Virus record (IMG/VR): IMGVR_UViG_3300006030_001480
Location: 1 to 36,605 of that record
Reading direction: 5' to 3' (one strand)
DNA length: 36,605 nt
Source of the DNA: a virus
A program made the translations under genes and the position numbers. Below the pieces are notes generated by a model. The model had not been told where the DNA came from. It saw nothing but the letters and a program-made list of their open reading frames with translations, and did not search any database. Shown one piece after another: positions 33,208-34,113 of the stretch; within the stretch, counting starts at the first letter, position 1, and every line of letters begins with the position of its first letter.

Positions 33208-34113
33208 AGAGAACCAGCACTGCAAAGTGAATCCCGATGTGAGAGAGTACCGCCTACGCTAAATGAACCGTGATGTTCAAGAACCCCATTCAAGGCAAGT
33301 GAATCAAGATTCAAGAGAGTACCGCTCCGGTGAAATGAACCGTAAACCAAGAGAGACCCATTCGGTTGGAGTGAATCAAGATGCATAAGAGCACCACACC
33401 CCTTAAATGAATCAAGATGCCGAAGAGTACCACGTGGCACGAATGAACCGGCTCCCCTAGAGTACCGAGCCATCTAGTGAGTCATTACCCGAAAGAGCAC
33501 CGTCCTGTAGGAACGAATCAAATCAGGTGAGAGCACCAGCCAGAACGAATGAGTCACTTTCTCAAAGACAACCGTCCGAAGGGAACGAACCGACGAATGT
33601 GAGAGAACCGATACGGGAAGTGAACCGACAGAGGTAAGAGAACCATTCATAGTCAGTGAACCGAAACATTTGAGAGTTTCAGATACGAACGAGTGAGTCA
33701 AATGCCATGAGAACCCCGATTGTTGCGAACGAAACATCGATACAGAGTGAACCAAGGATTCCGATTGAACCAAGGCGTGCAAGAGAACCAGACGTCTGAT
33801 TGAGTCAACAAGCGAGAGAGCACCGTCTTTAGCAAACGAACCAAAATACGTGAGAGAACCAACTTGCCGAAGTGAATCGTACCTCACGAGAGCACCGAGC
33901 ACCTAGAATGAGTCGTATTTCGCCAGAGAACCACGAAGACCGGAGCGAATCAAGGTCACGAAGAGAACCGTTACTCACAAATGAAGCATCAATGTTGAGT
34001 ACCCCACTCCGTTAGATTGAACCGTATGGCACGAGTGTGCCGTTTATTGTGAGTGAATCAATGAACCCAAGAAACCCATGACCTGCGAATGAACCGTGAA
34101 GTACAAGAGAACC
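33208..34113. repeat. Array of 26 units, 36-bp period, with two conserved boxes per unit and unique spacers
   Basis: Box A is AGAGNACC (33208-33215, then 33244, 33280, 33316 and so on). Box B is RRTGARYCR, with its TGA 20 bp after the start of box A. Between them lie stretches of 9-10 nt that differ in every unit. Of 25 box-A-to-box-A distances, 17 are exactly 36 and the others are 34-38. The two final CCs of box A occur in 25 of 26 units. On the minus strand the boxes read GGTNCTCT and YGGTTCAYT, giving a 6-residue G-S-L/D-S-F periodicity, but indels break the frame repeatedly. The array exactly fills the gap between two genes. No CRISPR-length repeat or cas gene is present. Function unknown. 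Confidence 0.9.

What the first reader, a model, noticed from the sequence alone, without database searches (positions are those of the whole stretch)
33208..34113. A 0.9-kb array of 26 36-bp units with conserved 8-9 nt boxes and unrelated spacers
Two short conserved boxes alternate every 18 bp (box A AGAGNACC, box B RRTGARYCR), while the 9-10 nt between them share no sequence from unit to unit. Seventeen of 25 intervals are exactly 36 bp and box A keeps its final CC in 25 of 26 units. That is neither an ordinary tandem repeat (spacers would be similar) nor a CRISPR (repeats far too short). On the minus strand the boxes read as a 6-residue G-S-L/D-S-F repeat, but single-base indels break the frame and the boxes are conserved at wobble positions while the spacers vary freely, so a coding role is unlikely. 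It fills the gap between two genes exactly. It could be a structured or processed RNA, a binding array for the adjacent HhH protein, a packaging or recombination site, or a store of short variable tags.
Basis: partly seen in the sequence, partly recalled or inferred. Interest (0 to 1): 0.93.

Follow-up and report, generated by a model that had tools for sequence, protein, structure and literature searches.

The report
Phage guide-RNA array (TIGR-TasA)
The odd array is a row of 26 two-part RNA guides, next to the gene for the protein that carries them, in a phage; it belongs to the TIGR-Tas family of RNA-guided DNA-binding systems described in 2025, and what its guides aim at is still unknown.

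Summary
The array is a TIGR array, a recently described kind of guide-RNA array. Its neighbour at 32165-33016 is a Tas protein (NCBIfam NF052498, 193 bits against a cut-off of 100). An AlphaFold model of it matches solved TasH and TasR structures first. It has no room for a nuclease domain, so it is the TasA type.

The array runs 33194-34127 on the + strand and holds 26 units. RRYGARYCR is the edge repeat and AGAGNACCR the loop repeat. The decisive evidence is pairing between the 3' half of each edge and the 5' half of the NEXT edge: 25 of 25 and 24 of 25 junctions in the window, with Watson-Crick covariation across 2267 units of related loci. The TasR structure shows the same kind of contact. 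It fixes an RNA unit of about 36 nt, mid-edge to mid-edge.

Among relatives, guides are gained and lost only as whole units, and the two spacers of a unit change together. I found no target signal above controls in the phage's own record (perhaps incomplete), in 18 relatives or in 1.18 Mb of related loci. It is a new member of a known kind. Array turnover and the missing targets bear on questions the discovery paper leaves open.

The parts
32098..32126 (+). promoter-like site (TTGACA-17-TACAAT, 11 of 12) upstream of tas; could drive tas, the small ORF and the array
   Evidence: consensus match only; 4 sites found against 3.3 expected in the region
32165..33016 (+). tasA: Nop-domain TIGR-associated protein, 283 aa, no nuclease domain
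   Evidence: NF052498 E 5.5e-57; PDB matches 9mty TasR and 21kl TasH; model and Foldseek
33013..33207 (+). 64-aa ORF of unknown function between tasA and the array, kept in L121 and L122; its last 14 bases overlap the first tigRNA
   Evidence: no family match
33194..34127 (+). TIGR array, 26 tigRNA units (21 of exactly 36 nt), 52 distinct spacers
33194..33198 (+). 5'-truncated edge repeat (AACCA); its two pairing bases match the first full edge
33208..33216 (+). first of 26 loop repeats (AGAGNACCR)
33226..33234 (+). first of 25 full edge repeats (RRYGARYCR)
34106..34114 (+). last loop repeat
34124..34127 (+). 3'-truncated edge repeat (AGTG)

Best explanation
The array is a TIGR dual-repeat array of a phage TasA system. 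[quoted passage not shown] the two half-edges of a unit can pair with each other; the neighbouring protein is a Tas protein without a nuclease domain. INFERRED from the TIGR-Tas work: the array is transcribed with or after tasA, cut into about 36-nt tigRNAs while bound by a TasA dimer, and each tigRNA guides the dimer to an 18-bp DNA site, spacer A pairing with one strand and spacer B with the other. Lacking a nuclease, TasA would bind and bend the site, and so block transcription or replication rather than cut. GUESSED: the sites lie in competing mobile elements or in the host, not in the phage itself.
For: Protein: NF052498 TIGR_Tas_endo 193 bits, cut-off 100, hit by 21 of 21 aligned rows; 9mty E 8.9e-18 and TasH 21kl E 9.6e-10; all eleven Foldseek hits below E 0.001 are TasH or TasR chains, IS621 next. 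RNA unit: within the window, edge i pairs with edge i+1 in 25 of 25 and 24 of 25 junctions at the two positions, against 18-20 of 22-25 and 12-15 of 22-25 at seven other offsets; 63 of 63 cells paired on 21 of the 26 tigRNAs (those of exactly 36 nt), covariation 0.605 against 0.225 (sd 0.043) in shuffles, 0 of 500 reach it; over 2267 units mutual information is 0.534 and 0.525 at the two pairs, against 0.136 and 0.132 for the same positions within one edge and at most 0.218 for any other position pair of successive edges, and G-U (271) exceeds A-C (109), which marks the + strand as the RNA. Array ends are truncated edges, as the paper describes. Unlinked discovery: of 119 loci fetched by box pattern alone, 86 have a Tas ORF, 85 of these with an array on the same strand, 74 within 400 nt downstream, 10 only upstream.
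Against: No expression or binding data exist. No terminator-like site follows the array, unlike the typical TIGR locus. The box D letters are A-R, not the UG of TasR. No target signal above controls was found, so the targeting step and its purpose have no support here from a sequence match. 33 of the 119 pattern loci show no Tas ORF in the stretch held; in 17 of these an array begins within 150 nt of the stretch's 5' edge, in the other 16 (one of them without an array of 5 boxes) there seems to be room.
Confidence: 0.93

Rival explanations
1. A decayed or frameshifted repeat-protein gene on the minus strand (G-S-L/D-S-F hexapeptides).
For: Period 18 is six codons; the minus strand has ORFs of 97 and 142 aa over the array, and box variants read as G/D-S/T/A-L/F.
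Against: In-frame stops, and 10 of 50 box-to-box intervals are 17 or 19 nt. Changes between related spacers show no 3-nt periodicity: 79 of 308 mismatch pairs at distance 3 or 6, against 25% by chance (28 of 89 in spacers with two changes, 51 of 219 in those with three). Box variation is explained by pairing between neighbouring edges.
Confidence: 0.01
2. A double-stranded DNA binding array (partition, packaging or recombination site) read by the HhH protein.
For: Regular short boxes beside a gene for a nucleic-acid-binding protein.
Against: Compensatory changes link the 3' half of one box to the 5' half of the next edge, 31-33 nt away, with G-U favoured over A-C on one strand. A DNA site has no reason for this. 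18-bp spacing is not a multiple of the helical turn (general knowledge).
Confidence: 0.03
3. An IS110-type RNA-guided transposon with a bridge-RNA-like locus.
For: Pfam Transposase_20 matches a 37-residue stretch, 23.8 bits, just above its cut-off of 21.3; IS621 structures are the next hits after Tas proteins.
Against: IS110 model NF033542 scores 21.8 against its cut-off of 140. No room for the DEDD nuclease domain: the model is all helices apart from two short strands near the C terminus, and residues 1-23 have low confidence. The array holds 26 units, not one bridge RNA.
Confidence: 0.01
4. A TIGR array whose guides act on the phage's own genome (regulation of its own genes, including tasA).
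For: Unit 18 (33803-33838) matches the tasA gene at 32229 in 16 of 18 positions with a 1-bp gap.
Against: By my estimate about 0.1 such matches are expected by chance in the window. Over the window and 18 relatives, own-genome matches of 16 of 18 or better number 6 (three of them copies of this one site) against 7, 2 and 5 with mispaired spacers.
Confidence: 0.07

Closest known systems
TIGR-TasA dual-repeat systems (Faure et al. 2025, PMC12045711; sections 4-10, 24, 44 and 49 read)
   Same: Solo Nop-domain protein; array on the same strand; two alternating 9-nt repeats with 9-nt spacers; 36-nt unit; truncated edges at both ends; covarying pairs between successive edges; found in phages.
   Different: 26 units, where the paper says most often 5-15; box D is A-R instead of UG; the box C/D pair itself changes between G-C and A-U; no terminator-like site after the array; a 64-aa ORF sits between tasA and the array. 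I did not see the paper's supplementary table, so this contig or a near twin may already be listed there.
TasR (9mty) and TasH (21kl, 9vzx and others)
   Same: Nop fold and guide-RNA layout as the paper describes it.
   Different: They carry an N-terminal RuvC or HNH nuclease; the window protein does not. Identity is 17-25% in the eleven structural alignments.
IS110 family transposases with bridge RNA (IS621, 8wt6)
   Same: Nop-like RNA-binding region.
   Different: No catalytic domain here, no single bridge RNA; the family model is far below its cut-off.
CRISPR arrays
   Same: Row of guides with replaced spacers.
   Different: Two 9-nt repeats, split 9+9 guides, no Cas family among the window proteins scanned, and unit sharing that does not fall off towards one end.

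Membership tests
TIGR-Tas | Nop-domain Tas protein next to the array | tested here: met
   NF052498 193 bits, cut-off 100; fold hits TasH and TasR
TIGR-Tas | Two distinct alternating repeats of 8-12 nt with 9-nt spacers | tested here: met
   40 of 50 box-to-box intervals are 18 nt, the other 10 are 17 or 19
[quoted passage not shown]
   window 33194-33198 and 34124-34127; same pattern seen by eye in many of the loci printed (not counted)
TIGR-Tas | Half-edges of one tigRNA pair, with covariation between successive edges | tested here: met
TIGR-Tas | Box C (CCA) and box D (UG) shared by edge and loop repeats | tested here: inconclusive
   Box C is YCR/CCR in the two repeats; box D is A-R in the edge and A-G in the loop, not UG. 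The paper says the motifs can diverge but then almost always covary between edge and loop.
TIGR-Tas | Rho-independent terminator after the array | tested here: not met
   none after 34127 on the + strand up to 35000; the paper describes it as typical, not as required
TIGR-Tas | Processing to 36-nt tigRNAs that need Tas | not testable with these tools
   needs RNA sequencing; 21 of 26 units are 36 nt
TIGR-Tas | Two spacers bind opposite DNA strands of one site | tested here: inconclusive
   no targets found; the two spacers of a unit turn over together, odds ratio 380 against 2.2 in the other register, each aligned in its own register
TasA subtype | No nuclease domain | tested here: met
   283 aa; residue 50 aligns to residue 123 of TasR; model helical, residues 1-23 below pLDDT 50
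IS110 transposase | DEDD catalytic domain and full-length family match | tested here: not met
   NF033542 21.8 bits, cut-off 140, match to 78 of 343 profile positions
CRISPR | Single repeat of 25-36 nt and Cas proteins | tested here: not met
   repeats are 9 nt; no Cas family among the 30 window ORFs scanned with PHROGs, 10 of them also with Pfam and 3 with NCBIfam

The most novel reading that the evidence does not exclude
In these phages the mature guide of about 36 nt is itself the unit of array evolution. Whole guides are gained, lost or swapped anywhere in the array, with junctions inside the edge repeat near the place where the RNA is cut, so a guide keeps its own pairing half-edges. That points to a route of array renewal unlike CRISPR's end-on acquisition (recombination at half-edges, or copying back of processed guides). 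Evidence: 33 of 33 gains or losses comprise whole units, and the outer edge halves stay with their old neighbours in 30 of 33 and 33 of 33, against 22 and 25 of 33 for the inner halves. Against: many edges are identical, which makes those cases uninformative, and selection for pairing alone could give the same picture.
Probability: 0.35. Interest if true: 0.65.

Novelty: new member of a known kind. Interest (0 to 1): 0.4.

Why it matters
It adds a well-formed 26-guide TasA array. It also suggests that this box type is mainly viral: at least 119 stretches of IMG/VR carry the pattern, but only 3 stretches in 84,980 bacterial and archaeal species genomes (those three were not examined further). 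The discovery paper leaves open what the guides aim at, how arrays grow and what nuclease-free TasA does. Orthologous arrays give data on the second point: whole guides turn over, with no preferred end, and in the one pair measured more guides are kept intact than drift at four-fold sites would leave.

Tried and rejected
Wrong register first: I took AGAGNACC as the edge repeat and ran a self-target search on that basis. Unit gains and losses and the array ends showed the opposite, and the searches were redone.

Spacers tracking synonymous changes in coding targets: a few aligned spacers looked 3-periodic. Over the distinct pairs with two or three changes they are not (79 of 308, 25.6%; two changes 28 of 89, three changes 51 of 219). 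Rejected.

Targets, window guides against 1.18 Mb of fetched loci with arrays masked: in one strand order 10 matches of 16/18 at 6 distinct sites, against a mean of 2.5 with mispaired spacers, a mild excess; in the other order 2 at 16/18 and 1 at 17/18, against 2.25 and 0. At 15/18: 55 and 57 against 49.75 and 54. All 2370 distinct guides of the set against the same sequence: 17 and 10 hits with one mismatch against 20, 17, 19 and 8, 25, 11 for decoys; 145 and 202 with two mismatches against 174, 175, 181 and 153, 190, 162; three exact hits fell in decoys, none in real guides. Window and 18 relatives (one relative held only in part): own-genome hits 6 against 7, 2 and 5; hits in the other genomes 62 at 16/18 and 5 at 17/18 against 52+1, 48+2 and 42+3 (plus one at 18/18) in one order, 29 against 31+2, 54 and 45+1 in the other, near-identical contigs counted repeatedly. 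I take this as no signal. A whole-database search for single 18-nt targets was not run, because by my estimate chance alone would give several hits per guide.

Single-strand folding of the whole array: z 0.72 (+) and -0.38 (-), no global fold; expected, since there are only a few isolated base pairs per unit. Rfam: no match at the gathering score. No similar DNA for 31400-36605 in INPHARED. The Tas protein hits three INPHARED records, two of Salicola phage CGphi29 (the paper's TasH source) and one of Microcystis phage Mvi-JY20, and no plasmid.

Full report
OBSERVATION. Two boxes alternate about every 18 bp between 33208 and 34114. A box-chain scan of the whole window on both strands, with profiles made from this array, finds this array only.

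WHAT STANDS NEXT TO IT. The protein at 32165-33016 matches NCBIfam NF052498 (TIGR-Tas system RNA-guided endonuclease) with 193 bits, cut-off 100. All 21 rows of an alignment of the window protein with 20 relatives match the same model. In the PDB its nearest sequences are 9mty, E 8.9e-18, and TasH, E 9.6e-10; with the alignment 9mty, TasH and IS621 match. The AlphaFold2 model (mean pLDDT 81, pTM 0.78) is almost all helices, with residues 1-23 below pLDDT 50. The eleven Foldseek hits below E 0.001 are all TasH or TasR complexes with tigRNA (9mty is titled TIGR-TasR), then IS621. Residue 50 aligns with residue 123 of TasR, so there is no room for an N-terminal RuvC or HNH domain. The model's name says endonuclease, but by the paper's scheme this is a TasA.

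THE FAMILY. I read sections 4-10, 24, 44 and 49 of the discovery paper (PMC12045711; its supplementary files were not seen) and passages of a review (PMC12385481). A TIGR array is a series of edge repeat, 9-nt spacer A, loop repeat, 9-nt spacer B. It is cut in mid-edge into 36-nt tigRNAs. Spacer A pairs with one DNA strand and spacer B with the other. The structure shows pairs between the two half-edges of one tigRNA. Natural targets, array growth and TasA's role are stated as open. Three library searches listed no later paper that, from its title and abstract, deals with these points; apart from the two named above I opened none of the listed papers, and subscription papers and preprints are not held.

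REGISTER OF THE UNIT. Three tests agree that RRYGARYCR is the edge and AGAGNACCR the loop. (1) Array ends: in the window a half-edge AACCA (33194-33198) lies 9 nt before the first loop, and AGTG (34124-34127) follows the last spacer. The same layout is seen in many of the other loci printed, often with the half-edge overlapping a stop codon; I did not count these. (2) Gains and losses between orthologous arrays start at an edge and comprise whole units: 31 of 31 in one alignment (array pairs sharing at least 8 spacers) and 33 of 33 in another that ignores the boxes (pairs sharing at least 6); the two sets overlap. Replacements of exactly two spacers start at an edge in 10 of 10; the other 8 of 18 replacement runs were seven single spacers and one triple. 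(3) The two spacers of a unit change together, odds ratio 380, against 2.2 in the other register; each was aligned in its own register, which favours both alike.

BASE PAIRING. Number the edge A1 R2 Y3 G4 A5 R6 Y7 C8 R9. In the window R6 of each edge pairs with Y3 of the next in 25 of 25 junctions and Y7 with R2 in 24 of 25. At seven other offsets the figures are 18-20 of 22-25 and 12-15 of 22-25. On the 21 tigRNAs of exactly 36 nt (5 of 26 left out because they are 34, 35 or 37 nt), 63 of 63 cells pair, including the invariant G-C pair inside the loop repeat. The covariation score is 0.605 against 0.225 in shuffles, none of 500 reaching it, and sliding the partners by 1-3 columns lowers it to 0.238 or less. 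Two of the tool's measures, pairs with a change on both sides and further pair types, are no better than shuffles there (286 and 336 of 500), as only two pairs vary. Over 2267 distinct units the pairs read A-T 660, G-C 1229, G-T 164, A-C 51 and C-G 1310, T-A 586, T-G 107, C-A 58. Mutual information is 0.534 and 0.525, against 0.136 and 0.132 for the same positions within one edge; the next highest value between successive edges is 0.218. The excess of G-U over A-C marks the + strand as the RNA. This explains why the first B boxes switch between AATGAACC and AGTGAATC. The sequences are related, so these counts are not independent events.

DISTRIBUTION. A box pattern with no protein in it hit at least 119 stretches of IMG/VR (the scan stopped at its limit). 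In 117 of these 119 loci I find an array of at least 5 boxes, and in 86 a Tas ORF by profile. In 85 of the 86 an array lies on the same strand; in 74 an array lies within 400 nt downstream of tas, in 10 only upstream. Of the 33 without a Tas ORF, 17 have an array that begins within 150 nt of the stretch's 5' edge; the other 16, one of them without an array, seem to have room and yet show none. The same pattern hits only 3 stretches in 84,980 species genomes (not examined further). The window itself is a virus record of 36605 bases with tail fibre, primase/helicase, ribonucleotide reductase and DNA methyltransferase families, so a tailed phage.

ARRAY EVOLUTION. Two contigs with an identical Tas share 50 and 48 of 50 spacers with the window; two with 87% Tas identity share none and one. 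Homologous spacer pairs are bimodal: 726 identical, 273 with 1-3 differences, 550 with 4-8. In the pair L121/L122, 21 of 63 comparable spacers are identical where drift at the four-fold site rate of tas (32 of 136) would give 5.6, and 15 differ at 5 or more sites where 2.5 are expected (collinear index, 63 of 74 spacers usable, last base of a spacer often a conserved purine). This suggests that guides are either kept under selection or replaced outright. Sharing shows no trend towards one end, 0.52, 0.55, 0.64, 0.58 and 0.53 in successive fifths over 15 chosen array pairs. Where units are inserted or lost, the edge halves belonging to the old neighbours stay with them (30 of 33 and 33 of 33; inner halves 22 and 25 of 33). 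Many edges are identical, which makes those cases uninformative.

TARGETS. No signal above controls (counts under Tried and rejected). The best self match, unit 18 against tasA at 16 of 18, is within chance.

MECHANISM. Shown by sequence: an RNA array of 26 paired-guide units with a Tas protein that lacks a nuclease domain. Inferred from the family: processing to 36-nt guides and two-strand DNA binding without cutting. Guessed: repression of competing elements or host loci.

Noticed in passing
window 33013-33207: A 64-aa ORF between tasA and the array, kept in L121 and L122 (73 aa), with no family match; its end overlaps the first tigRNA.
   Followed up: partly
window 1396-4324: Three consecutive genes (1142-4421) each hold roughly 120-bp tandem repeats; no PHROG match.
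   Followed up: no
window 26404-26527 and 28596-28719: About 80% identical DNA at the starts of two large unknown genes (26385-28295, 28577-30424), so they look like partial paralogues (coordinates converted from L120).
   Followed up: no
window 28577-30424: Weak Pfam match to phosphatidylinositol 3/4-kinase, 25.7 bits, just under the cut-off of 27.1.
   Followed up: no
window 34172-34774: Rv2179c-like 3'-5' exoribonuclease directly after the array (Pfam PF16473, 48 bits); whether it trims tigRNAs is untested.
   Followed up: no
window 35603-35827 and 36211-36605: Short tandem and palindrome-like repeats; the last stretch recurs in rearranged form in L123.
   Followed up: no
window 11884-11963: tRNA-Ile with anticodon TAT, which I recall as an unusual one in bacteria.
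   Followed up: no
L068 3230-7171: The longest array chained in the set: 216 boxes, about 107 units; the chain runs across the tas gene, so it may be more than one array.
   Followed up: no
L003, L012, L013, L026, L118 and others: Arrays on both sides of tas.
   Followed up: no
L179, L180, L181: Three bacterial metagenome-assembled genomes (Lachnospiraceae, Acidobacteria, Tidjanibacter) hold one match each to the box pattern; possibly prophages.
   Followed up: no
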